From a virus, in IMG/VR virus record IMGVR_UViG_3300037963_002268, positions 1 to 26,742 of that record: a DNA stretch of 26,742 nucleotides; one strand, 5' to 3'. The translations under genes were made by a program, and so were the position numbers. Position 1 is the stretch's first letter. The number at the start of each line of letters is the position of its first letter. This document shows, in pieces, positions 13,601-26,694 of the stretch. The notes beneath the pieces were generated by a model. The model was not told the origin of the DNA. It did no database searches and worked only from the letters and a program-made list of their open reading frames with translations.

Positions 13601-16054
13601 GATTATATAGATAACGTTGGTAAATTAGAATTTTATACAAACAAAGCATTTGACGCATTAATGGGACAAAGAACTGACAATGCTTCACGTTCACCAGTGT
13701 TTAGACAAGCATACTGGAGAACAATATTTGATATGCTTCCGTATATGTCAGGCAAGATGAGACAAGTTATGTTAGAAGGCGGTACGTACACAATAGACGG
13801 TAAAGAGTTTAAAGTTGCAGGCGCATTAAATGCAAACCTACCTGGAGAAAACATGATAGCTACTTTTAAAGCTGATCTTGGTTTGCCTGCAGAAAAATTA
13901 CGTAAAGCAGATACAGAAATAAACATTGATATGTTTCAACGTAAAATAAAAGAACTTAACGATAGAGATACAGAATTAGGTTTAGGTTTTGAAGATATAG
14001 ACGAAGAGTTTGAGAATTTATCTAACGCATTAAATAAAAAGAAAAAAAGATTACAAGACAAGATGACAGATAAGCAAGAAGAGCTTATGCAACTAGAACT
14101 AGACATTACAGGAACTTATGGATCAGGAGTTACATACGAAGATGATATTGTACCTGCAAATATAAAACAACGTGTTGATGATTTACAAGAAGATATATTT
14201 GATCTTGAATCAGAGATAGATGATGTACAAGATGTATTTAACAACAACATGAAAGAAAAAGCAGAATTACTAGGATTTACAGATAAATCTGGTGACGTTG
14301 ATTTAATTGATAGAATAGCAAAAGCACGTGCATTAACAGAAGTGCAAGAGCTGTTGTATGACTTAACTAAACGTAAAAAAATTGCATATAACTTACGTGG
14401 TATTTTTCCATTCGGTGAAGCATATATAGAAATTATGACTACATGGGCTAAGTTATTAAAAGATAATCCAGAGATATTACGTAGAGGTCAAGTTACTGTA
14501 AACGCATTACGTAGAGATAATGTGTTTAGTCCTGTAGAAGGTGAAGGATTTTTAGGAGAAGATGAAGTTACTGGAGAAGAAGTATTTTATTATCCTATGA
14601 TTGATGACTTAGTATCTGACGCATTGTTTGGTGAAGATAGACAAGTTGGTGTAAGATTGCCTGGTTATGCAGGATCACTTAACTTAGCACTAGAAGTAGT
14701 ACCAGGCATTGGTCCTGCAGTTGCTATACCTGCTAGCTTTTTTATAAATGCAAGTCCTAACTTTGATGAAGTTAAAAAAATTATGTTTCCTTATGGTTTA
14801 CCAGATGTTAGATCTGCTAGTGACTTAATTGCTGCAGCAGGTGTACCTGCATGGTTAAGAAATACAGTACAAGGTTTATACGCATATAACGAAGATGTAG
14901 GTCAAAACGAACTAACACGTATTGCTTCTAACACAACTATTGATGTTTACAGAATATTAAAAGCAAATGGTAGTGATGACAGTACAACAGAACGTCAAGA
15001 AGAACTTATGAAAGAAGCTAGAAGTATTGCTAAAAATCTAGCATTTATAAAAGCAGCTTCACAGTTTGTTGGTCCAGTAGGACTTAATCCACGTTTTGAC
15101 GTAGGTAATGATAAAAATGGTGGTCACGTTTATTCTATGCAAATACTTGCAGATAGATATAGAGAGTTATTAGAAACACCGCCTAAAGATCCAGAGTCAG
15201 GTCAATTCTTATATCCACCTGGAGATAACTACTATGCAACTAAATATTTTATAGATGAGTTTGGTTTTAATCCACTAGACATAGCTACTCCTAAAACAGT
15301 AGTTGTAGAACCTAGACCTGTAGATGAGCGTGGTGTACAGTTCCAACAAGATAATCCAGAGTTATTTGAGCAATACTCTATAACTGCACAGTATGCAATA
15401 CCACAAGGCGGCGGTGGTCCATTTGATTATGAAGCATACGTTAGAACAATAGCTAGTGAGCAGAGAGAACCATTAAAACCAGAAGAATGGTTGCAAAAAC
15501 GTAATCAAAGATTAGGACAGTTTTTTATGGAAGAAAAGCGTGTATCTACATTACAGACATACGATATTACAGATCCATATCAAAACTTAATTAGAGAACG
15601 TGAAATGGCATTTTTTAGAGATATTGCACGTAGTAAGTTTCCTGGTTTTGATTCTACAATACCTGGTTTACCACAAACAGCTACATTAGAAATGCAGTAT
15701 CAAGAACTACAAAATTGGGAAAAGAATAGAAAACTAGCTAGTACACCTGTAGGCAAAGACTTACGTGTAGTCTTTAGCATGATTAATACACTAGAACAAC
15801 GTGCGTTAAATGGCGGTTTATCTAAGAATGGTTGGAGAACATCTAGGTCAATGCTAAAAGAACGTCAACAATTACGTGACACTATAGGTATGTTAATAAA
15901 TAAAAATCCAGATTTTCAATTAGTAGCTGAAAGAGTGCTGCTTCCATTATTCCAGGAACGTACAGATTTCTTAGAGGATTTGCAATACGATTATGATACA
16001 CTTAAAGAATACGGTGTATACTTACCACAGCTAACTGATACAGAGGATATTTAA
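10670..16054 (+). CDS. Giant virion-type protein, 1794 aa, function unknown
   Basis: This 5.4-kb gene starts at ATG 10670 overlapping the previous TAA (TAATG). The product is largely alpha-helical and has no catalytic motif that I can recognise. Visible features are a Gly/hydrophobic segment around residues 395-440, a helix-rich centre with FWKPFVLLRGAWLLRVVGEE (about 660-680), and a long charged coiled coil at about 1086-1215 (KELNDRDTEL; KKKKRLQDKMTDKQEELMQL). It also has IFPFGEAYIEIMTTWAKLL at 1245-1263, and a Gly/Pro hydrophobic stretch EVVPGIGPAVAIPASFF (about 1343-1360) that could insert into a membrane. The C-terminal 300 residues are hydrophilic and helical. Its position after the portal and its size suggest an internal or injected virion protein of the large polyvalent class, but I see no specific domain. 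It is one of the two largest genes here. Confidence 0.75.
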   Translation: MAEFHRDNPAQEQEFYQEIIKRQATYKRAKQSISKDDAVRASAISQAYPNFSPDVITALTTLQVKPEATVLNDISKMIAQSNSQTILDKVFEPLQAGVRLGFLGLEDLYRTTVDRPINSFIASTFGDKAETLTFSEAYRQSGKSTVKQLIGELNKGKKINLGEGFLPQSEVFDPANPQSKFYDEYQYMIRSGFDEGRAQSIIQNYLGTPITTIDRQMQEGNENFTITSQYGTAPISLGRSLALQVAEPNTRTFNVVSGVLDAGKALFLDPANYLSLGLKAFTKSKKSLKIPDYLAKELEKIEPDKLTKAQKEYIGAVNKGWGLPFISGRSVSNYLSKDPGGKKLINYFAELDSPNKFMELTGITDREAIAAFMDISQDFTKSAAEKQSAMQNLLTEFLEDPFGPFGTGQAPTVGAIGRFLGGRAEDLLGGVPEGTGKLFGAKKVIKTKLMDSPNRSARILSTYAGEFPYRYVDSNQLDDAVSNIKGWLDQTTVDPIAKDQIINRAVRLEDGDQTGLFNVVKDMVTFATDDLVDNYGVNKEDAFTFSRIFEDYLPELRAYFIDAVTGNNVANPGAKISQTIIDNKAFVNPDPHLLTEFINRTIPLPDPGQLSRAMNSMSLIRAKASEAGIDMFSKLPANIRAGTMSKIIDSYYSDFWKPFVLLRGAWLLRVVGEEQLRMYTRGYDNIFSRPLSVLSLGLLKKPNKTEAARWTSKDVKFADLLGNPLDEALEWQQASSRRYGSNNFDYLFGGAYKAGRRRKKPGVHPMDVVTKEDALRNRETQPRLIQKYFDDGIVREIAHLHYDRLFNFLFRGAMTKKQRDARLKEFVEGDSLRAKEIIEAYSKGGPTYRARMNTAGGRYAYAESITARVNQLAGGSFTQELDVLDDLSRRINVDDIDFGKTPFPLSVEKTANNNILEMLLRNRLNRLDGKQFVDETLDDFFDSIKNGDQTIYRNVKKKLLSDEYIESLPNVVAVGKTDYIDNVGKLEFYTNKAFDALMGQRTDNASRSPVFRQAYWRTIFDMLPYMSGKMRQVMLEGGTYTIDGKEFKVAGALNANLPGENMIATFKADLGLPAEKLRKADTEINIDMFQRKIKELNDRDTELGLGFEDIDEEFENLSNALNKKKKRLQDKMTDKQEELMQLELDITGTYGSGVTYEDDIVPANIKQRVDDLQEDIFDLESEIDDVQDVFNNNMKEKAELLGFTDKSGDVDLIDRIAKARALTEVQELLYDLTKRKKIAYNLRGIFPFGEAYIEIMTTWAKLLKDNPEILRRGQVTVNALRRDNVFSPVEGEGFLGEDEVTGEEVFYYPMIDDLVSDALFGEDRQVGVRLPGYAGSLNLALEVVPGIGPAVAIPASFFINASPNFDEVKKIMFPYGLPDVRSASDLIAAAGVPAWLRNTVQGLYAYNEDVGQNELTRIASNTTIDVYRILKANGSDDSTTERQEELMKEARSIAKNLAFIKAASQFVGPVGLNPRFDVGNDKNGGHVYSMQILADRYRELLETPPKDPESGQFLYPPGDNYYATKYFIDEFGFNPLDIATPKTVVVEPRPVDERGVQFQQDNPELFEQYSITAQYAIPQGGGGPFDYEAYVRTIASEQREPLKPEEWLQKRNQRLGQFFMEEKRVSTLQTYDITDPYQNLIREREMAFFRDIARSKFPGFDSTIPGLPQTATLEMQYQELQNWEKNRKLASTPVGKDLRVVFSMINTLEQRALNGGLSKNGWRTSRSMLKERQQLRDTIGMLINKNPDFQLVAERVLLPLFQERTDFLEDLQYDYDTLKEYGVYLPQLTDTEDI

Positions 16055-17838
16055 TGACAAAAGAGATGAAACAATCTTTGGTGGATAGCATAATACAACA
16101 AAATGGTTATGGTCCTGATGAGCAAATAACTAAAGATTTATTGGCTTTAGTAAATGAATCTAATGATCAATTATTTATAGCTAAGTTATACAACGAAATA
16201 GCTTTATACAATAAAGTGCAGGCAAAGATGTCAGACAACTATGTAGGTTTTTCTTCTGCTTTTCCAGTACAATCACAAGGCGTACCTGCAAGTAAGCGTG
16301 GACAAGCTGCAGTTAATCCTGCATTAGCAAACATAAACATTGCAATAGAAAACACAAATCCTGAATGGAGAACAGATGAAGCTATTGTTAAAGATTTTTA
16401 TAGAGGATTAGATGTTGCTACTGGTATAAAAGGACCAGAAGGTTCTGATAATGCAGAAGCATATTATGATTATCTAAATACAAAACTAAATCAGTTAGTA
16501 GAGGATACAGGATTACTAGGAGTTGTTATACGTCCACCACGTGGTGAAGGCGGTACAATTTACATGTCAGAAGATTTAGATGACTGGTTTAGAAATAACA
16601 CACCTATGGATATGACAGAAGGTTTTTATCCTGCAGAAGGTAAATCGTACAGAAAATATCCAGGATTTGCCAAACCTACAATTATAACAAAACCAGTTAT
16701 GACATTTAACGAAGAGTCTGGATACTGGGATCATACAGGTGATTATCTTAAAGGTGCAGAATCATTTAACAGTGATGGTAAATTTAACACAGGTTTAGAT
16801 ACTGGTGATACATTTCAGGTAGCTGTTGGTACAAAGAAACCAGACGGTACATCTGTAGGTGAAGTACAAACACTTAGTTATGATGAGTACAAATTATTAC
16901 AACAAGAAGTAGCAGAAGATCCAAGTAGTGAAATTATTAATGTATCTGGTGACAAAGCACAAGTGCAAGCACAGTTAGATAGATGGGTTGATTACAATAC
17001 TTCTGACGCAGCAGCGCCAGAGTATTCTATATTTGGTGGTATAACACCTGAATATGCAATCTACAAACAACCAGATCTTGCTAACGCATTTAAAGATGGT
17101 GATCCTACTGCAGCACAAATGAAAGACGCAATGTTACCTGAACAAGTATATGCAGGTAGTATTCCAGAAGAACAGTTTTATGGTGGTTTTGATCACATAT
17201 CTGGTCAAGGTCCAGGACTTAACAACTCACAAAAAATATCTTGGATTTCATTAGCACCACAAGAAATTAAAGCAATACAAACAGATCTTATGCAAGCAGG
17301 TTATTTAGATCCTGAATCATATTTTTTAGAGCAGGGTGCATGGCAAGATAAAACAGCAACAGCTATGGCTTCAGCTATGACTGACGCTAACTTAAATATG
17401 ACAGATGTGTATTCACAGTTAACTGCAGAAAAAGAACGTTACTTTACTAAACCACCGTTGTTGCCTAAAGTATATCAACAACCATCTCCAGAGTTTGTTA
17501 AATCACAAGTTGACGCGGCACTTAAATCTGCAGGTGTTACACGTAAACTTACAGACGCAGAACTTGTAGCGTTTTCTGATTACTACATACAAGCAGATAA
17601 AGATTACGAAACTGCAAATGCAGAATATCAAAAGAATTTAGATTTAGCTAATAGATTATTTCCTGGTGCGCCATCAGAAATTATGATACCTTCTACACCA
17701 GGCGAAGAATTAGCAGCATTTGCAGAACAACAATTTGAACCACAGTTACAAGCACAACAGAGAGGTATACAAGAACGTAACGATTTAAGTTATTTGTTTA
17801 GTTCTATAGATCAATTTGACCGTATGATTGGAGGATAG
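16054..17838 (+). CDS. Virion-type protein with peptidoglycan-binding-like segment, 594 aa
   Basis: ATG 16054 overlaps the upstream TAA (TAATG), with an AGAGGA-type ribosome-binding site just before it. The protein is acidic and Gln-rich. At about residues 397-442, WISLAPQEIKAIQTDLMQ is followed by AGYLDPESY and GAWQDKTATAMASAM. This is the pattern of a peptidoglycan_binding_1-like repeat (x-LQ-x-x-L-x-x-x-G-Y ... G-x-W/F-x-x-x-T-x-x-A). After it comes VKSQVDAALKSAGVTRKLTDAEL, a helical module often found behind such segments in phage minor structural proteins. The C-terminus is a helical, Gln-rich tail. A likely role is cell-wall contact or virion structure during entry. The enzymatic partner may be the lysozyme-like protein downstream. 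Confidence 0.6.
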   Translation: MTKEMKQSLVDSIIQQNGYGPDEQITKDLLALVNESNDQLFIAKLYNEIALYNKVQAKMSDNYVGFSSAFPVQSQGVPASKRGQAAVNPALANINIAIENTNPEWRTDEAIVKDFYRGLDVATGIKGPEGSDNAEAYYDYLNTKLNQLVEDTGLLGVVIRPPRGEGGTIYMSEDLDDWFRNNTPMDMTEGFYPAEGKSYRKYPGFAKPTIITKPVMTFNEESGYWDHTGDYLKGAESFNSDGKFNTGLDTGDTFQVAVGTKKPDGTSVGEVQTLSYDEYKLLQQEVAEDPSSEIINVSGDKAQVQAQLDRWVDYNTSDAAAPEYSIFGGITPEYAIYKQPDLANAFKDGDPTAAQMKDAMLPEQVYAGSIPEEQFYGGFDHISGQGPGLNNSQKISWISLAPQEIKAIQTDLMQAGYLDPESYFLEQGAWQDKTATAMASAMTDANLNMTDVYSQLTAEKERYFTKPPLLPKVYQQPSPEFVKSQVDAALKSAGVTRKLTDAELVAFSDYYIQADKDYETANAEYQKNLDLANRLFPGAPSEIMIPSTPGEELAAFAEQQFEPQLQAQQRGIQERNDLSYLFSSIDQFDRMIGG

Positions 17839-17839
17839 T

Positions 17840-20800
17840 TTGTCATTAAAAGATGATGTACAAAAACTCGAATCAGAATTATTAAAAAAATATGCTGATG
17901 TATTAGAGTTTGATGAATCAGTATTTGGTGATTTAGATAACAAGTCACCATTAAGTTTAAATTATTATGACGGTAAATTAAATATTGACGTAATATCTGT
18001 AGCACCTGCTAGTCAAAATCAAGGTGTTGGAAGAAATATAGTGAATGAAATTATTGCGTTTGCTAATGCTAATAATTTAGAAATAAGAGTTGATAGTTTA
18101 GTAGATGAATTTTTTGAAAAAATGGGATTTGAAAATTTTGCTGATGAACAAGGGTTTGTTGATGAAGCATTATTTCGTAAATTACCAGATACAAAAGAAG
18201 ATCAGGTTATGCAACTCCTTGACGACCTTAAAGAAAAATACGGACAATTTTTAGATGACACTGCAAGTGAAGCAGGAGATGGTAGTGGATTACATTTTGA
18301 TTTAACATCAGGCAATATAATAGATGGTGATGAAATATACATTGAAGCATTTTATTTAAAACCAGAAGCACAAGGTAAAGGCATTGGTAAAAAAATGGTT
18401 AATGCTATAAAAAAATTATCAGATGAAATAGATGTACCAATTACTTTATTAGATAAAACTTTAGAATCACCATACGGCAGTAGTTTTTGGAAAAGTATGG
18501 ATTTTGATATTGATGATGATACTGCTACAGCACTGTACAACTACGGTGGTGATCCTTCAAGCACAAGATTTGCAAAAGAAAGTTTACAATTAGCACCAGA
18601 CGATCCAAGCGAATTATTTAAAGATCCTGCTTCAGAAAATATGACAGGTGCTATGGAAAGTTTATCTGCTGCATTGCCAGAAGATTTATCAGATGTTGAT
18701 TTATCTGACGAAGATAAACAAATGATAGAAGATTTTAGAAAAAACAAAAAAGAATTTGAAGCTATAACAAATCCAGTAAATAGTTTAGAAGATGATGTAG
18801 CAGAAATAACGAATGATTTTGTTGCTAAAAAATTTGCAGAACCTGTAGATACTGCTGATGGTGTCATTATGCGTATTAATGATTCTAATGAATTAGAAGT
18901 ATTAGTTATTAAAAGAAAAAGAGGACCACACAGAGGTGATTGGGCATTGCCTGGTGGAATTATGGATTCTGAAACTCTTAAAGAATTTGACATGGCAGAA
19001 GAAGCATATATGGACAATAACGTTGACTCCAATAACAAATCTCATGTAGCTTTTGGTAAAACTCCTGCAGATGGAGATAGTAAACAAAGGAGATACACAT
19101 TTACAGCATTAAAAGAAATTATGGAAGAAGTTGGTTTAGACCTAAGCGATCCTGATGTAGTAGATACTTTAGGCGGTATGGTTAAATCATTGACACCAAA
19201 GTATGCAAGACTAGATTGGGACGCTAGAGCAACACAAGGAGTAAGTGTTGGTGGTGCATTTGTATTTGTACATAACAATGATTGGCAACCAAAAGCAGGA
19301 GATGACGCACTTAAAGCAGAATGGAAAACAGTCAAAAGTATTGTAGATGGTGATATTAAATTAGCTTTTGGACACACAGAATGGTTAACACAAGTATTGG
19401 GAAACCGTAAATTATTAAGACAAACTGGTATGACTAAAGCGTTTTCTAGTTTTAATACATATAATCCTATGAAGTTAGAAAACTATGTTGGAGATTATAC
19501 AGAAACAATGGATAAGCTGCATGAAATAAACATAAAAAATAAATCAGATATTACAGAATTAATACAAGCTGCAAACAAAGTACGTGTTGAAAAAGGCATG
19601 CCAGAAATTCCAGTAGACAAATCTAATATACAAGGAACAGCAGAAAGTATAATTAAAAATTTAAGATTAAATGGTCCTGGTGAACCTGAATTAATATTAT
19701 CAAATATGCAACCAGAAGAGTTTATTAATAGAATGTTGACAGATAAACAAATCAATTATGAATTATCTATAGATGATTATGTTCAAGATGTATTTATAGA
19801 AGAAGTTAATAAACAAAAAATTGGTGATGAAATTGTGACAATAGATGATTTTACAAATCCTACTAGCAATACAAAACTATTAGATGTTGGTGCATTAGAC
19901 GTACCACTAAACGAAACAGGTATTGATAATGTAGCAAGACAAATACAACAACAATCTATAAAAAATGTAGAAGATCAATTAGCATTTTTATCACGTCAAG
20001 GTTTTAATGATTATCAAATATTAGATGAATTAAGAAATGTTTATACAGAAAAATTGCTTACTCCAAAATTTTTAAAATTATTAAAACAAAATATTAGAAA
20101 TGCACAAAATGAAAAACGTACAAGTTATTACGCATTAAGTAAAATAGATACAATTTTAGATCCTTCAGTAACACAACCTCCAAAAGTTGTTATAAGATAC
20201 AATAACAATAGAAATATATTTAGCACTTTTATATTAAATAATGAAATACAAGATTATCTTAAAACTGAAAAGCAAGAGAATTTTTTGTCACAAGTGTTTG
20301 ATAATCAAATGATGAAATTACCACCTGCAGAGTTCTTTCAAAAATATGGTGAGTTTGATGAAACATTATCACAAAAGTCAGCTTATGTACAGGACGGAAA
20401 ATTATACTTTCAAACAAATCACGGTACACCTGGACCTAAACAAGGTATTTTAAATCTTATAGCTTATGCAACAAGCAGAGCAAAAGATGATCCTAGATTA
20501 GGCGATATTGCACCAGGATTAAAACAACAACGTCCTGTATTTTTTGACAACACATTTTCATTTGTTGATCCTACTTTAGGAAAAGGAGGACTTATAGGAC
20601 CTTTACTCTACACAACTACAAGTCCTTTTGTTGGTGCAGGTTATGCTACAGGAAGTGCTGATGGACATGATACATACAGTCTAAATTCAGTAATCAGAGA
20701 TGACATAGAAGGATTTGTAAATAGTAATAAATATAATATAAAATTTTTAAGTGAGTTAGAAGAAGTCGCAAAACAAAATGGAATAGTTATAGATTTTGTA

Positions 20801-23182
20801 AAATCAGATGATAATTGGACTTTCACAGGATTGTCTGATTTTAATGGTAATAATGATACAACATCAGCTAATGTTGCTAATATTCGTGGATCAGTAAATA
20901 TAGAAAATGTATTAAAAATTAATCAATCAACTTTACCTGGACAAGGTGATAACAAATTACAATCTTACTGGGAACAAGTGTTAGATATGTTTGGTGAAGA
21001 TTGGTATGAGAATGATTTAAAAAATGACGGCGGTGTAGTAAAGCGTTTAAATTTTGGTTTAAAAGATAATATTTTTTTTGATTCAGATCTTGGATTACCA
21101 GAACCAAAAACAAATTATAAATTAAAACCAGAAATTATACCGTATATAGTTGCTGCAAACAAAGTAAAAGCTATACCAGGCGCACAAGATGTATCGACAT
21201 TAAGAAATTGGTACAGATGGAAAACAACAACTGATCCTGATTTTTTTCCAAACATAGGTCACATTGTTGGAACAGGTAGTAACTTACCAAGAATATTAAG
21301 CGGAAATTTACAAAACAATATAAACAATGAAGTAATACAAAAAGCATGGAAAATTGATAAAAATATACCAGGTATATTCGACAACACTGATCAATATAAA
21401 AATGTAATTCAAGTTTTAGACAATAATCATCATTATTTTGGTATAGCAGATTCTATAGATTATCAAGTTCTTTCCAATACATTAAAAGGAATTGTTGCAA
21501 TACGTGAAGAAAATTATATTGAAGCAGCAAAATTCTTAGCAATAGAATTTTTAAATGGTGAATGGGTACCTGTAGCTGATAAATTGGCAACAGAATTAGA
21601 TGAAGCATTAAGTGGTCTTGATTTCAGTATGGACTATAAAAATAATTTAGTTTCAGACGTAGATAAAATATTAAATAAAGAATTAAAATTACAAGATAAT
21701 TTATTAATTAGTAATTTTAATAAAGAATTTTTTGATACAAATAGAGTAAATTTTGTAAATAATTATTTTGAAGCAAATAACTTAAAACCAATAGCTACTA
21801 AAGATAATGTTGAAGATATTTTAAATTCTATTTATTCTTACGAATTAGGTGATAGCGGTATAAACAGTGATATTTTAGATAGAAAAATTTATACATTAGC
21901 AGGTCAAAATGGTTACGAATTAGCATTAAGTACAGGCGGTGGAAGGGTTGGTAGTAATCCTCATTGGGTTTTAGGTATCATTGATCCTTCTAACAAATTA
22001 CAAACTAATATGCCAAAAACATTAGAAGTTGGTGTAAAAGGTTGGGCTTTTATGAACGAAGATGACGCTGAACATTTATATAGATTAGGTAGTAGAAACT
22101 TAGAAAATTTAACAGACGAAGATTTATTAGTAATGTCACGATATATGAATCCACAGACCATTATGGATTTAGATATATCAGAAGCACAATTAGAAAATCT
22201 TGATAAAATTACTAAAGAAAAAGGAATTTATTTTGGTACAAGTTTAGACAATTTAGCACCACAAGGTACTACAAATCTTTCAGTAAGACACATGATGTTA
22301 CAAAGTGAACTTCATAAAATACACACGCTTGCAGAAGTTGGACAAGTACCAAAAGAAGCTGTGTATCCAATAATAAATTCATTTCTTAAATTATTATCAG
22401 AACTACCAGAAGAAGCTAGAGCTCAATTTTTTATGGGCGCACCAAACACTGTAGATATAATTAACAAATATACTAAAGCTACAATGCGTGGTGCAGGTAC
22501 AGCATTGAAATACGGTGGAAAAGCTGCAGACAAATTTGACAAATATGTATTGTTACCTGCAGCTTTAGATATATTAGCTAGTCGTATATCTGGTCCTGGA
22601 TCACAGTACGAAACTATAGGTGGTGCAGTAGCTGACACAATAAATAGATACGAAGGAGAAGAAAAAGATACGATTATAGAAATGTTGTATGGAAATAAAA
22701 ATAATCCAGAAGTTAAAAACATATTTGGTGTAAATATTGCAGCACCAGTAACAGAGGGCATTGAATACGGCAAAGATAAATTTAAAGAATATGTTTATGA
22801 CAATAATATTTTTGGTATAAAAAGCATAGTTAAATTTTTAAAACCTAAAGTTATTGAAGAGTTAAAAGAAGTAAGAGATAAAGTTGGCTTAAATGATTGG
22901 CTTTACAAAGCAAAAAGAGATATGGTTGTTGAAATGATAATGACAGATAATAATGTTCCATATACAAAAGAAAATATAAACATATATACTAAAGCGTATG
23001 AAGATAATAATCCTAGAGAAGTAGACAAGTATGGTAATGAGTTACCTGATAATTATGACAACAGTTGGGCTAGCAGCATACCAGACAACAGACTTTCAAG
23101 AGACTTCCGTGTTTCTGAACGAATTAGAACAGGAGATAGATACACAAGAGGTGGTGGAGGAAGTGGAGTTGTACAAGAGTAA
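17840..23182 (+). CDS. Giant polyvalent protein: GNAT - GNAT - Nudix - ART-like, about 1780 aa
   Basis: I choose the TTG start at 17840 because GGAGGA (17830-17835) lies 4 bases upstream. TTG 17828 would add four residues. Domains in order: a GNAT acetyltransferase with VAPASQ-NQGVGRN (54-66, acetyl-CoA loop Q59-x-x-G62-x-G64), and a second GNAT with Q178-x-x-G181-x-G183 in LKPEAQGKGIGKK. Then a Nudix hydrolase with WALPGGIMDSE (G372 to E378) and KEIMEEVGL (425-433, catalytic E429/E430). Further on is an ADP-ribosyltransferase-like segment with NHGT (860-863, H861) and LLYTTTSPFVGAGYA (Y924). The remainder is helical with a hydrophobic C-terminal part (YVLLPAALDILAS). Multi-enzyme chains of this kind are known as polyvalent proteins, thought to be packaged and delivered with phage or plasmid DNA to modify or protect against host factors. 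Targets are unknown. By eye the gene is more AT-rich than its neighbours. Confidence 0.7.
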   Translation: MSLKDDVQKLESELLKKYADVLEFDESVFGDLDNKSPLSLNYYDGKLNIDVISVAPASQNQGVGRNIVNEIIAFANANNLEIRVDSLVDEFFEKMGFENFADEQGFVDEALFRKLPDTKEDQVMQLLDDLKEKYGQFLDDTASEAGDGSGLHFDLTSGNIIDGDEIYIEAFYLKPEAQGKGIGKKMVNAIKKLSDEIDVPITLLDKTLESPYGSSFWKSMDFDIDDDTATALYNYGGDPSSTRFAKESLQLAPDDPSELFKDPASENMTGAMESLSAALPEDLSDVDLSDEDKQMIEDFRKNKKEFEAITNPVNSLEDDVAEITNDFVAKKFAEPVDTADGVIMRINDSNELEVLVIKRKRGPHRGDWALPGGIMDSETLKEFDMAEEAYMDNNVDSNNKSHVAFGKTPADGDSKQRRYTFTALKEIMEEVGLDLSDPDVVDTLGGMVKSLTPKYARLDWDARATQGVSVGGAFVFVHNNDWQPKAGDDALKAEWKTVKSIVDGDIKLAFGHTEWLTQVLGNRKLLRQTGMTKAFSSFNTYNPMKLENYVGDYTETMDKLHEINIKNKSDITELIQAANKVRVEKGMPEIPVDKSNIQGTAESIIKNLRLNGPGEPELILSNMQPEEFINRMLTDKQINYELSIDDYVQDVFIEEVNKQKIGDEIVTIDDFTNPTSNTKLLDVGALDVPLNETGIDNVARQIQQQSIKNVEDQLAFLSRQGFNDYQILDELRNVYTEKLLTPKFLKLLKQNIRNAQNEKRTSYYALSKIDTILDPSVTQPPKVVIRYNNNRNIFSTFILNNEIQDYLKTEKQENFLSQVFDNQMMKLPPAEFFQKYGEFDETLSQKSAYVQDGKLYFQTNHGTPGPKQGILNLIAYATSRAKDDPRLGDIAPGLKQQRPVFFDNTFSFVDPTLGKGGLIGPLLYTTTSPFVGAGYATGSADGHDTYSLNSVIRDDIEGFVNSNKYNIKFLSELEEVAKQNGIVIDFVKSDDNWTFTGLSDFNGNNDTTSANVANIRGSVNIENVLKINQSTLPGQGDNKLQSYWEQVLDMFGEDWYENDLKNDGGVVKRLNFGLKDNIFFDSDLGLPEPKTNYKLKPEIIPYIVAANKVKAIPGAQDVSTLRNWYRWKTTTDPDFFPNIGHIVGTGSNLPRILSGNLQNNINNEVIQKAWKIDKNIPGIFDNTDQYKNVIQVLDNNHHYFGIADSIDYQVLSNTLKGIVAIREENYIEAAKFLAIEFLNGEWVPVADKLATELDEALSGLDFSMDYKNNLVSDVDKILNKELKLQDNLLISNFNKEFFDTNRVNFVNNYFEANNLKPIATKDNVEDILNSIYSYELGDSGINSDILDRKIYTLAGQNGYELALSTGGGRVGSNPHWVLGIIDPSNKLQTNMPKTLEVGVKGWAFMNEDDAEHLYRLGSRNLENLTDEDLLVMSRYMNPQTIMDLDISEAQLENLDKITKEKGIYFGTSLDNLAPQGTTNLSVRHMMLQSELHKIHTLAEVGQVPKEAVYPIINSFLKLLSELPEEARAQFFMGAPNTVDIINKYTKATMRGAGTALKYGGKAADKFDKYVLLPAALDILASRISGPGSQYETIGGAVADTINRYEGEEKDTIIEMLYGNKNNPEVKNIFGVNIAAPVTEGIEYGKDKFKEYVYDNNIFGIKSIVKFLKPKVIEELKEVRDKVGLNDWLYKAKRDMVVEMIMTDNNVPYTKENINIYTKAYEDNNPREVDKYGNELPDNYDNSWASSIPDNRLSRDFRVSERIRTGDRYTRGGGGSGVVQE

Positions 23183-23183
23183 T

Positions 23184-24134
23184 ATGTTTAATTTAGATAA
23201 TCTTAAAGAAATAAAATATTCATCTTCTGTTGTAGAAGGTGGTGGTGATGGTTCTGATCAAAAACCACGTATTAATACAGACGAACAAGACATACAAACT
23301 ATGAATCAAGATGATTTATATTTTTATATACACAATTATGCGAACAATGTTTTTGAAAAGGATTTATTAGGAAGAAATGCACAACCTTTTTACAGTAACG
23401 GTGTAAATAGAATTGACGAATTTATGGGTATATTAGCAGTAGAAAGTTTGTCAAACAGAGATTCTACTGGTGAATATACTGAATATAAACCTAAACCATA
23501 CAATGTAAATGCTTCTTTGCAAAATGATTTTAACGATAGCTACGGAGTATTTCAAATAGATACTGGACCTGCACTACCTTATATATTTATGACAATGGAA
23601 GGTGCTAATGCAGATGATGTAAGAAGTCTAGCTCAAACAGAAGATATGAATATAGTTATGACTTATGCAAAAAAACTTTTTGAAAATGATGATGTTAAAA
23701 ATGAAGTGTATAGTTTCTTAAAAGATCCTAACAATATTGATAAACATATAAAGATAGCTGCAACTATATGGAATGATCATCAATTATCAAAATTAAAAAA
23801 AGACGGCGCAAAAGGTTGGAACGCATACAATAATTATAATAACAAAACTAAAGGTAAAGAATATTTAGATACCTATGAATTATATATGAATAGAGCTAGC
23901 GATTTAGGATTAAATTTTTATAAAAAACAATTAAGAAATAGAACAGAAAGACACAGAGAAGATCTTGATGACCTTAAACAATTCTTAAATATGCCTGCAT
24001 TGGGTGCTACAATAGAGGAAGCTGCTAATAATTTAGCGGAAATTTATGAGGAAGCTGTGCAAACTGGACAAATACCAGATGAAGCAGCACCTGTAGATTA
24101 TTTAAAAGATTTAGGAAATATGTTTAGAAGATAA
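23184..24134 (+). CDS. Lysozyme/lytic-transglycosylase-like virion protein, 316 aa
   Basis: ATG 23184 lies one base after the stop of the giant gene. In-frame codons further upstream would run far into that gene. The central part has the layout of the lysozyme superfamily: a helix ending in GILAVESLSNRD with the candidate catalytic Glu (E87), then SYGVFQIDTG (about 119-128). The latter matches the conserved 'S-x-G-x-x-Q-I' strand of transglycosylases. A later helix has AATIWNDHQLSKL with GWNAYNNYN, like the substrate-groove end of these enzymes. The insertion between Glu and the YGVFQI segment is longer than usual. The C-terminus is helical and charged. A plausible job is local cell-wall cleavage during DNA entry. 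It could instead be a structural relative without activity. Confidence 0.55.
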   Translation: MFNLDNLKEIKYSSSVVEGGGDGSDQKPRINTDEQDIQTMNQDDLYFYIHNYANNVFEKDLLGRNAQPFYSNGVNRIDEFMGILAVESLSNRDSTGEYTEYKPKPYNVNASLQNDFNDSYGVFQIDTGPALPYIFMTMEGANADDVRSLAQTEDMNIVMTYAKKLFENDDVKNEVYSFLKDPNNIDKHIKIAATIWNDHQLSKLKKDGAKGWNAYNNYNNKTKGKEYLDTYELYMNRASDLGLNFYKKQLRNRTERHREDLDDLKQFLNMPALGATIEEAANNLAEIYEEAVQTGQIPDEAAPVDYLKDLGNMFRR

Positions 24135-25387
24135 TGGGTTTAGCAAATTTTTTACCAAATGACACACAGATAGTAGAAGAAATAGATTCTGCTACTGGTG
24201 CTAAAAGTTATTATCTTGTATACAGTCTTTCTAAAGACCTTATACCAGAAGGATTAACTTACAGATATAAATTTAATAATTTAAAAGAAGTGTCTGAAGC
24301 TGTTGGTCCGACTGCAGAAATAAATGCAACTATTACAAAAGACGGTGATGATTTTACTTTTACATCAGGTAGTTTACAAAACATAACTATTGATGATTAT
24401 GCAAATAGTTTTTATTTTGGAAATCATACGCAACTTAGATCTGTCTATACACAATTAGATTTAGCAGATCCTGAAGAAGGCGCACAAAGTTATGATTATT
24501 TAATAGAATCATTAAACATAGAATCACAGTACAAACCTTATTTAATGTCAAAAGACGCAAAAGGAAGATACGATTATTTAGCAGTTGTTATTGAGGCAGC
24601 ACTAGAAGGTAGAACTGCAAGAGAAGCAGAGCTTGCACAAACGACATGGTGGAAAAAACATACAGCTAGTGAAAGACAAGAGATGTTATTTGCACATCAA
24701 GATCCTGCAACATTTAGTAAGCGTGGTATACGAACTAGAGAAGATATTATAAGCAAGATGATGGCGGCAGGTATTACAGAACTTGATGGTGGAGTAATAG
24801 ACGCTATTACACAAAAAGCACAGTACGGTGTATTTGATGATAATGATATACAAAATACAATAAACAAATTAGCTAATCCACTTATTAGATATACATTAGA
24901 TCCTGAAATTAAAGCTGCATTAGAAGGCAAAACATTAGAGACAATAGAACTTACAAGACAAATAGAAAATACAATAAATTCTATACTTGGTCCAGGAGTT
25001 GCAGATAACTATAATTTAGAACAATTACTTGCAGATTACCAAGACAATCCTACTGCATTTACACAAGAGTTTTTACCTAATTTAGAAGATCAATTTCAAG
25101 CAAAGTTTACACAGTACGAAGGCACTAATGTAAAATCATACGAAAGCATTGCACCTTTATTAAGACAAGAATGGCAAGGCATTACAGGTCAAAGAGCAGA
25201 TGAGACTACTGCAGCATGGAACCAGTTTATTGCAACTAATGATGTAGCAGAGCGTAAGGATATTGCATTTGCTTTTGCAGCAGAATCTGGTTCACAAGCA
25301 TACAGAGATCAGTTTAAACAAGATATGGAAAGTGCATTTGGTAAAGCAGGTGCTAGATCAACAGGCGGAGGAAGGTTTGGACTATGA
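24134..25387 (+). CDS. Phage structural-type protein with WWKKHTASERQ segment, 417 aa
   Basis: ATG 24134 overlaps the previous TAA (TAATG). The protein is acidic and mostly helical after a beta-rich N-terminal part (YYLVYSLSKDLIPEGLTYRYKF). At about residues 170-195, TTWWKKHTASERQ is followed by HQDPATF. A W-W-K-x-T-x-x-x-R-x ... DPATF segment like this recurs, as I remember it, in large minor structural proteins of actinobacterial-type phages, usually near the tail or internal-protein genes. The C-terminus is Gly/Arg-rich and disordered (GARSTGGGRFG). No catalytic motif is seen. It is coupled to the next gene by an ATGA overlap. Confidence 0.6.
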   Translation: MGLANFLPNDTQIVEEIDSATGAKSYYLVYSLSKDLIPEGLTYRYKFNNLKEVSEAVGPTAEINATITKDGDDFTFTSGSLQNITIDDYANSFYFGNHTQLRSVYTQLDLADPEEGAQSYDYLIESLNIESQYKPYLMSKDAKGRYDYLAVVIEAALEGRTAREAELAQTTWWKKHTASERQEMLFAHQDPATFSKRGIRTREDIISKMMAAGITELDGGVIDAITQKAQYGVFDDNDIQNTINKLANPLIRYTLDPEIKAALEGKTLETIELTRQIENTINSILGPGVADNYNLEQLLADYQDNPTAFTQEFLPNLEDQFQAKFTQYEGTNVKSYESIAPLLRQEWQGITGQRADETTAAWNQFIATNDVAERKDIAFAFAAESGSQAYRDQFKQDMESAFGKAGARSTGGGRFGL

Positions 25388-26694
25388 GCATACTAGCTAG
25401 AATTATGAATTTGAATCCAATGATTGATGGTACTATTACACCACCAAATAGAACACCGCAAACACAGCAAGCAGTTATACCAGAACTTACTGCAGATACA
25501 GATTTAGAAGCATTGCGTGCAGCAGCAGCAGAAGATCCTGCAGTTGTAGCAGCTAGAGAACAAGCAGAAAGACTTGCTGCAGCAGGTGCGGCAGGTGCAG
25601 CAGGCGGAGACGGCGGAGACGGCGGAGACGGCGGAGACGGTGGAGACGGTGGCGAAACAGGCGGCGGCACAACAATATCTGATGAAACCGTTTTAGAAAA
25701 CGGTAGATTAATTGTTTACAGAATTACTAGGGATTCTGAAGGCAACATTGTAAGCAGAGTATTTTTAAAAGATTTAGGACCAGAAGGCGGCGGCGGTGGC
25801 GGCGGTGGACCAGAACCTGATCCTGAACCAGGAGATCCAGGAGAACAGTTTAATGCTAGAGAGTTTGCTAAAGCTAACTATAGTTTTTTAGGTGACGAAT
25901 TATTAGAAGTATTTATTAGTGAGTATGATACAAATGGTGGTGACGTTGATGAAGCACTACGTGCTATGCGTAGTACACAATCTTACAAAGATAAGTTTCC
26001 TGGCATATTTAGAGAAGATGGTACTACATTAAGATTTACTACTGCTACACCTGAACTTGATTATATAAAAATGCAAGAAGATTATTTTAACGCATTAGAA
26101 GATTACAATCTTAATCCAGAGTATTTTGAGGATAAAGTAACACAGTTGTTTTTAAATGACGTAGATCCTACAACATTTACTAATAGATTAGATACTGCAT
26201 ATACATCATTGTTTAATCAGTTTGACGCTGTAAAACAATACTATGTAGAGAACTATCCTGGACAATTTCCTACTACAGATGACATATCAGATGAAGCTAT
26301 ATTTGCTAGCTTTATATCAGAAGATATATCACAAGATATTATTGCACAAAGAATTAAAGTATCAGAAATAGGTGGTGCATTTGCAGAAGAAAAGTTTGCT
26401 GTATCAGCAGATCAAGCACAGAGATTAGTTAGTGCAGGATTATCTGGTACTGGTGCGCAACAAATAGCACAAAGAGCAGAAGCTCAATTACCAAGACTAC
26501 AAAGACTTGCTAGACGATTTACTGGTAGAGAAGATATATTTGGACTATCAGAGTTTATTGAGTCTGAAGTATTTGGTGAAGGAGTTTCGGCACAAGTAAG
26601 AGAAAGACTTGAAGCAGAGCAACGTACAGCGTTTACGCAAGAAGGCGGTGCTGCTGCTACACAAGCAGGAGTAACAGGATTGGTAGAACAGTAA
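25384..26694 (+). CDS. Virion-type protein with Gly-Gly-Asp repeat linker, 436 aa
   Basis: ATG 25384 overlaps the previous TGA (ATGA) and has a strong ribosome-binding site, GGAGGAAGG (25367-25375). The N-terminal 65 residues contain an Ala/Glu-rich helix (LEALRAAAAEDPAVVAAREQ). A low-complexity linker of G-G-D repeats follows (about 73-90), then a short beta segment (ENGRLIVYRITRDSEGNIV) and a second poly-Gly/Pro linker (about 136-155). The rest is helical and acidic, with a Gln/Arg-rich C-terminal part (AQLPRLQRLARRFTGRED). It resembles the previous gene in its composition and both may belong to one structural module. The role is unknown, probably structural. Confidence 0.6.
   Translation: MSILARIMNLNPMIDGTITPPNRTPQTQQAVIPELTADTDLEALRAAAAEDPAVVAAREQAERLAAAGAAGAAGGDGGDGGDGGDGGDGGETGGGTTISDETVLENGRLIVYRITRDSEGNIVSRVFLKDLGPEGGGGGGGGPEPDPEPGDPGEQFNAREFAKANYSFLGDELLEVFISEYDTNGGDVDEALRAMRSTQSYKDKFPGIFREDGTTLRFTTATPELDYIKMQEDYFNALEDYNLNPEYFEDKVTQLFLNDVDPTTFTNRLDTAYTSLFNQFDAVKQYYVENYPGQFPTTDDISDEAIFASFISEDISQDIIAQRIKVSEIGGAFAEEKFAVSADQAQRLVSAGLSGTGAQQIAQRAEAQLPRLQRLARRFTGREDIFGLSEFIESEVFGEGVSAQVRERLEAEQRTAFTQEGGAAATQAGVTGLVEQ
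25603..25656 (+). repeat. In-frame 9-bp tandem repeat coding Gly-Gly-Asp
   Basis: GGCGGAGAC occurs four times in a row (25603-25638), then GGTGGAGAC (25639-25647), then a decayed GGTGGCGAA (25648-25656). It is codon-aligned and encodes a flexible acidic linker. The stretch is far more GC-rich than the surrounding genome. Such repeats often change copy number by slippage. Confidence 0.9.

What the first reader, a model, noticed from the sequence alone, without database searches (positions are those of the whole stretch)
17840..23182. One virion-region gene fuses two acetyltransferases, a Nudix hydrolase and an ADP-ribosyltransferase-like domain
Seen: two separate Q-x-x-G-x-G acetyl-CoA loops (residues 59-64 and 178-183), a Nudix signature (372-378 plus 425-433) and an NHGT / LLYTTTSPFVGAGYA pair typical of ART-like folds, all in one chain of about 1780 aa. 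Known: polyvalent proteins of phages and conjugative elements combine unrelated effector domains and are thought to enter the host with the DNA. Inference: this is an injected host-modifying effector that could acetylate, ADP-ribosylate and hydrolyse nucleotide or ADP-ribose-type substrates. The Nudix next to the ART is suggestive because some Nudix enzymes process ADP-ribose or NAD-related molecules, so the pair could write and edit, or clear a defence signal.
Basis: partly seen in the sequence, partly recalled or inferred. Interest (0 to 1): 0.9.

Follow-up and report, generated by a model that had tools for sequence, protein, structure and literature searches.

The report
Phage effector gene with swappable enzyme modules
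A marine bacterial virus carries, among its particle genes, one giant protein with acetyltransferase modules and a domain predicted to cut ADP-ribose-like molecules, and its closest relatives have swapped the front modules cleanly in and out, as if the virus keeps changing the tools it may carry into its host.

Summary
One open frame (best start TTG 17840, end 23182, 1780 aa) holds two tandem GNAT domains (Pfam, above cut-off) and a Nudix domain. The Nudix fold is solid: the predicted structure matches ADP-ribose-bound NrtR (Z 14.5) and NadM ADP-ribose pyrophosphatase (Z 13.8). Its three catalytic glutamates are invariant in all relatives aligned, although an insert splits the Nudix box and its first Glu is missing. 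The ART claim remains motif-level only: the H and Y motifs are invariant in 17 sequences, but Pfam ART-PolyVal, profile comparison and fold search gave no support. Phages about 92-97% identical around it differ by clean, in-frame gain, loss or swap of N-terminal cassettes (GNATs, a 240-residue module, others) in front of the Nudix. The GNAT2 cassette stays 80-97% identical on bodies often only 25-47% identical, and recurs on a different C-terminal anchor at the same genomic position. One related phage lacks the gene. I read it as a polyvalent-type effector, probably carried in the virion. Packaging, injection and all activities are untested. New variant of a known kind.

The parts
17830..17834 (+). 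Shine-Dalgarno GGAGG for the start TTG 17840
   Evidence: sequence read
17840..23182 (+). the modular effector gene, 1780 aa from TTG 17840
   Evidence: open frame; relatives at the same position
17840..18175 (+). GNAT1, minimal GNAT with QNQGVG acetyl-CoA loop (18014-18031)
   Evidence: Pfam, weak RimI-like NCBIfam hit; paralogue of GNAT2; no close relative found by a narrow IMG/VR scan, but a tandem GNAT pair occurs in L211 and L213
18188..18577 (+). GNAT2, mobile cassette with QGKGIG loop (18371-18388)
   Evidence: Pfam; 80-97% identical on divergent bodies; found in 15 IMG/VR loci
18587..18775 (+). about 63-residue linker module (PDDPSELFKDPASENMTGAMESL..), before the Nudix here, after it in L129/L130
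18788..19432 (+). Nudix domain, NrtR/NadM-like (ADP-ribose pyrophosphatase type)
   Evidence: Pfam, PDB profile search, Foldseek and VIA
18977..19099 (+). insert of about 41 residues splitting the Nudix box; absent in L129/L130
   Evidence: alignment A5
19112..19138 (+). second half of Nudix box KEIMEEVGL; E430, E433, E434 invariant
   Evidence: alignments A4, A5
20369..20917 (+). ART-like region: NHGT (H865, 20420-20422), LLYTTTSPFVGAGYA (20603-20647); ART assignment not confirmed
   Evidence: invariant motif residues in A3; compatible strand/helix order in the model; negative profile and fold tests
21890..23179 (+). conserved C-terminal region, probable anchor; includes NGYELALSTGGG..HWVLGIIDP, whose E1364 is a candidate third ART residue (inference)
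   Evidence: invariant columns in A3; cross-clade similarity
16054..17838 (+). upstream conserved virion-cluster gene; marks the left edge of the exchange site
   Evidence: 97.5% DNA identity to G002 ends at 17837
23184..24134 (+). downstream gene (mechanical start 23031, likely start ATG 23184); in a sister branch a phage lysozyme gene stands beside the effector gene

Best explanation
The gene encodes a polyvalent-type effector of a marine tailed phage (probably short-tailed), made with the virion proteins and probably packaged and delivered with the DNA. Its C-terminal region is the constant part (probable docking or ejection part). Its Nudix domain is a near-constant core enzyme that probably hydrolyses ADP-ribose or a related NAD-derived nucleotide, which could clear an NAD-based host signal or product. 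In front of it stand exchangeable cassettes (in this phage two GNATs, probably acetylating host proteins) that recombination adds, drops or swaps in frame between near-identical phages, as expected if they counter varying host targets or defences. Shown here: GNAT and Nudix domains, conservation of catalytic residues, genomic position, cassette exchange. Inferred: packaging, delivery, substrates, biological target, and whether the middle region is an active ART.
For: GNATs and Nudix above Pfam cut-off. Nudix model Z 14.5 to NrtR Nudix with ADP-ribose (rmsd 1.9 over 139), 13.8 to NadM ADPR pyrophosphatase, most other Nudix enzymes about 10-12. Profile search hits NadM and NrtR, NadM on both sides of the insert. 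Catalytic Glus invariant. Gene lies between conserved virion-cluster genes; lysozyme genes occur at the same place in relatives. Exchange: window vs G002 97.5% over 12,084 bp, ending at 17837, just before the gene; L144 vs L145 95.7% and 93.6% flanks around a GNAT2/240-module swap; L149/L150, L150/L156, L154/L156, L158/L161, L149/L154 and L129/L132 show further clean swaps or indels; GNAT2 80-97% identical on cores often 25-47% identical. Gene absent in G020. Polyvalent and virion-packaged NAD/ADPr enzymes are described in PMC5512222 and PMC9503650.
Against: No virion proteomics and no cultured relative with this gene. The C-terminal region matched no known fold, so 'anchor' is inferred from conservation and position. 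The Nudix box is interrupted and lacks the first Glu; NrtR, one of the closest folds, is a regulator that senses ADP-ribose, so this domain might bind rather than cleave. GNAT models are of low confidence. Module exchange could also reflect a surface-exposed or receptor-related role rather than intracellular enzymes.
Confidence: 0.6

Rival explanations
1. It is mainly a structural or ejection protein (internal core or tail-tube lining) and the enzyme-like modules are passengers or structural add-ons with little catalysis.
For: Size, helical C-terminal half and position among structural genes; best BFVD rows for the C-terminal part include tape-measure and internal core proteins, but none is significant (E 0.07 and worse); first Nudix Glu lost.
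Against: Catalytic Glus and acetyl-CoA loops are kept while sequence diverges to about 25-50%; one phage of the group lacks the gene (G020), unlike an essential core protein.
Confidence: 0.2
2. One reading: an ART and a Nudix in one chain act together: the ART modifies host targets and the Nudix processes ADP-ribose products.
For: H865 and Y928 invariant in 17 sequences; strand/helix order compatible; virion-linked ARTs are common in polyvalent proteins (PMC5512222, PMC9503650). Nudix and ART-like region co-occur in the long relatives.
Against: No ART family hit, no profile match, no ART fold match, third acidic residue not identified. L129/L130 carry the Nudix on a 582-627 aa protein without that middle region.
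Confidence: 0.15
3. The exchange patterns are metagenome assembly chimeras rather than real recombination.
For: All relatives but one MAG contig are IMG/VR metagenomic contigs.
Against: Junctions fall at domain borders and stay in frame in many pairs, the same architectures recur in independent contigs (for example L156 and the MAG contig L165), and flanks differ by several per cent rather than being copies.
Confidence: 0.05

Closest known systems
Polyvalent proteins of phages and conjugative elements (Iyer et al. 2017, PMC5512222)
   Same: Very large multidomain protein in the virion gene cluster combining unrelated conflict domains, including RimI-like GNATs; a GNAT next to an ART in one chain is already reported there (for example BAR32501.1, known to me only from the paper).
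   Different: Here the core is an NrtR/NadM-type Nudix with a split Nudix box, there is no ART-PolyVal hit, and stepwise cassette exchange is visible between near-identical phages.
Virion-linked NAD/ADPr enzymes of phages, including T4 Alt and T4-like NudE (PMC9503650)
   Same: Nudix of ADP-ribose type encoded in the late cluster near virion lysozyme genes; proposed there to counter NAD-derived signals.
   Different: Part of a 1780-residue multidomain chain; nearest to NadM/NrtR by sequence and structure; delivery not shown.
NadM (NMN adenylyltransferase/ADP-ribose pyrophosphatase) and NrtR Nudix domains
   Same: Closest solved folds and sequence relatives (2r5w, 2qjt, 3gz8); Vibrio phage NadM-type genes are among the best phage hits (E 2e-3).
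   Different: No adenylyltransferase or HTH partner; insert inside the Nudix box.
Beephvirinae (Streptomyces phages such as Immanuel3)
   Same: Closest database phages by terminase (27%) and a short stretch of the 1794-aa protein; similar order TerL, portal, giant gene, cell-wall enzymes, capsid.
   Different: No recognisable relative of this effector protein.
Polymorphic toxins (from general knowledge)
   Same: Constant part with exchangeable enzymatic modules at conserved junctions.
   Different: Here the variable modules are at the N-terminus and can be stacked, the gene belongs to a phage virion cluster, and no immunity gene was looked for.

Membership tests
GNAT acetyltransferase | profile match above curated cut-off | tested here: met
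   Acetyltransf_7 46 bits (cut-off 27), Acetyltransf_1 41.4 (20.7), two stretches
GNAT acetyltransferase | acetyl-CoA loop Q/RxxGxG/A | tested here: met
   QNQGVG 63-68 and QGKGIG 182-187
GNAT acetyltransferase | GNAT fold | tested here: inconclusive
   strand/helix order fits but model confidence is low for both GNATs
Nudix hydrolase | Nudix fold | tested here: met
   pLDDT about 90; Z 14.5 to 3gz8, 522 chains with Z of 8 or more
Nudix hydrolase | uninterrupted 23-residue box GX5EX7REUXEEXGU | tested here: not met
   split by about 41 residues, Thr383 at the first Glu position, Lys429 for Arg in this clade; the family is nevertheless clear from fold and catalytic Glus
Nudix hydrolase | metal-binding glutamates of REUXEE | tested here: met
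   E430, E433, E434 invariant in all rows
ADP-ribose pyrophosphatase (NadM/NrtR-like Nudix) | closest relatives by sequence and structure | tested here: met
ADP-ribose pyrophosphatase (NadM/NrtR-like Nudix) | hydrolysis of ADP-ribose | not testable with these tools
   needs enzyme assay
ADP-ribosyltransferase (ART) | strand-1 His and strand-2 Tyr motifs | tested here: met
   H865 and Y928 invariant in 17 sequences; that they lie on the ART strands is not shown
ADP-ribosyltransferase (ART) | family profile match (ART-PolyVal PF18760, profile comparison) | tested here: inconclusive
   no hit in eight records although the roseophage control hits at 1.5e-11; hhalign not significant; too divergent to exclude
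ADP-ribosyltransferase (ART) | ART fold and catalytic Asp/Glu | tested here: inconclusive
   model of low confidence, no informative fold match; E1364 is only a candidate
Polyvalent protein | large chain combining several unrelated conflict domains | tested here: met
   GNAT, GNAT, Nudix and unknown domains in 1780 aa
Polyvalent protein | encoded with virion/packaging genes | tested here: met
Polyvalent protein | packaged in the virion and delivered to the host | not testable with these tools
   needs virion proteomics and delivery assay

The most novel reading that the evidence does not exclude
A phage counterpart of polymorphic toxins: a virion-delivered effector with a constant C-terminal docking part and a near-constant ADP-ribose-cleaving Nudix, whose N-terminal enzyme cassettes are stacked, dropped and swapped at fixed junctions between near-identical phages, tuning counter-defence to local hosts.
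Probability: 0.4. Interest if true: 0.8.

Novelty: new variant of a known kind. Interest (0 to 1): 0.62.

Why it matters
Polyvalent phage proteins are known from domain surveys, but here natural pairs of closely related phages differ mainly in one effector cassette. If the protein is delivered into the host, such pairs are ready-made experiments on what each cassette does against which host, and on whether phages bring an ADP-ribose-cleaving enzyme in with their DNA against NAD-based immunity.

Tried and rejected
Protein and DNA searches of 50,697 phage records with the gene or a relative: nothing. ART tests: Pfam scan and PF18760 search negative; hhalign of the two pieces and of the L131/L134/L135 N-termini against seven ART references not significant; Foldseek and VIA of the 790-1784 model gave only unspecific helical matches, BFVD nothing significant. 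I did not splice the two candidate ART halves together; the pieces were compared apart. PF18760 is rare in the sampled related bacterial genomes, so few references were gained. GNAT1 alone found no relative with the narrow pattern scan, yet a tandem GNAT pair turned up in L211 and L213 when GNAT2 was the query. The first viral-contig scan with the whole protein found nothing; going through the terminase opened the family. Considered and set aside: assembly chimeras (see rivals); NCBIfam hits to thymidylate synthase in the downstream gene and to an aminoglycoside acetyltransferase at 970-1024, both far below cut-off and taken as chance. A repeat search around the gene showed nothing that would mark a dedicated switching device.

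Full report
What was checked. The gene is one intact frame at 17828-23182. Residue numbers here count from 17828. The window is a 26,742-base virus record without tRNAs and without a near match in the phage collection.

Domains. Two GNAT domains are present above Pfam cut-offs, each with its acetyl-CoA loop; they are tandem paralogues (28% identity, E 7e-6), with RimI among the better NCBIfam hits although well below that family's cut-off. The Nudix domain is above the Pfam cut-off. Its model is confident, and the closest folds are the ADP-ribose-bound Nudix domain of NrtR (Z 14.5, rmsd 1.9 over 139 residues) and NadM ADP-ribose pyrophosphatase (Z 13.8), with most other Nudix enzymes at about 10-12. 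A profile search agrees and aligns NadM on both sides of the insert. The Nudix box is unusual: about 41 residues are inserted between its GG loop and its catalytic helix in this protein, the first Glu is replaced, and the Arg is Lys in this clade, yet E430, E433 and E434 are invariant in all aligned relatives. Relatives L129 and L130 lack the insert.

The ART claim. NHGT and LLYTTTSPFVGAGYA are really there, and their H, G, Y, T, P, F and Y are invariant columns of an alignment of 17 sequences with 20-53% identity to this protein. The order of strands and helices predicted for 852-1024 is compatible with the first half of an ART. But no ART profile rings, although the same search rings in the control roseophage RNA polymerase; profile comparison with seven ART references is not significant; and fold searches show no ART, on a model of low confidence. 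A possible third residue, E1364 in NGYELALSTGGG, is my inference only. Status: open.

Genomic setting. The terminase found 79 related loci in IMG/VR. Gene order is terminase, portal, small genes, a 1794-aa gene, a 594-aa gene, this gene, a 316-367-aa gene, two further genes, and then in longer relatives the major capsid gene. In a second branch the same place holds a phage lysozyme gene followed by a 580-630-aa protein with a Nudix (L129, L130) or with other N-terminal regions (L131, L132, L134, L135). In G020 the lysozyme gene is followed directly by the next conserved gene, so the effector is missing. The closest database phages are Beephvirinae, by terminase and gene order; that these are short-tailed phages is from my own knowledge. 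One relative lies in a contig binned with a Rhodobacteraceae MAG, a weak hint at the host.

Cassette exchange. This is the main new result. The window and G002 are 97.5% identical over 12,084 bp, and the identity stops at 17837, directly before this gene. G002's protein lacks both GNATs but keeps the 63-residue linker before the Nudix. L144 and L145 are 95.7% identical up to the gene start and 93.6% identical from the Nudix on, but one has GNAT2 and the other a 240-residue module of unknown fold. L149 and L150 differ by clean gain or loss of that module in front of GNAT2; L150 and L156 swap GNAT2 for a 130-residue domain behind the shared 240-residue module; L158 and L161 differ by about 500 bp at the front; L149 and L154, and L129 and L132, show further swaps. 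L140/L144 and L157/L162 show divergent middle parts between conserved ends. Across proteins, GNAT2 is about 80-97% identical while the bodies are only 25-47% identical in most pairs. GNAT2 relatives also sit on the other C-terminal anchor (L212) and, as a tandem GNAT pair, inside a longer divergent protein (L211, L213) at the same genomic place. I count about eleven N-terminal architectures among some sixteen distinct long proteins.

Mechanism. Shown: GNAT and Nudix domains, invariant catalytic residues, position, exchange. [quoted passage not shown] The best reading is a polyvalent-type effector whose constant parts are the C-terminal region and an ADP-ribose-type Nudix and whose front modules are exchanged. 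Packaging, delivery, substrate and target are not shown.

Limits. The exchange evidence rests on metagenomic contigs. The scans use short peptide patterns and miss divergent relatives. The C-terminal half has a poor model. No activity is measured. Interest is set at 0.62: a surprising, testable variation on a known theme.

Noticed in passing
window 23031-24134: The mechanical start of the downstream gene overlaps the effector gene by 150 nt, but an ATG at 23184 directly after its stop begins MFNLDN.., matching MFDARS.. in a relative; the overlap is probably not real.
   Followed up: partly
window 18977-19099: An insert of about 41 residues (longer in some relatives) lies inside the Nudix box, between the GG loop and the catalytic helix; two relatives lack it.
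   Followed up: partly
L156:6320-7081, also L145, L157, L159, L162: A 240-residue module of unknown fold (LLVYGPYDLE) is among the most frequent swapped cassettes, followed by a recurrent linker PDTVEAAAADVVPD that may serve as a junction.
   Followed up: partly
L131:4905-6737 (-), L134:2876-4711, L135:1998-3785: These slot proteins begin with LYHGS..GFHVGTY.AA.DR, which looks ART-like by eye, but Pfam and hhalign gave no support.
   Followed up: partly
window 25576-25656: Tandem 9-base repeats coding short Gly-rich units in the gene at 25384.
   Followed up: no
L168:8087-8629 (-): Roseovarius Plymouth podovirus 1: ART-PolyVal domain in the virion RNA polymerase found at E 1.5e-11; several other roseophages carry a similar stretch.
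   Followed up: partly
L157 vs L162, L140 vs L144: The middle part of the effector is a second divergent block between conserved ends, suggesting allele exchange there too.
   Followed up: no
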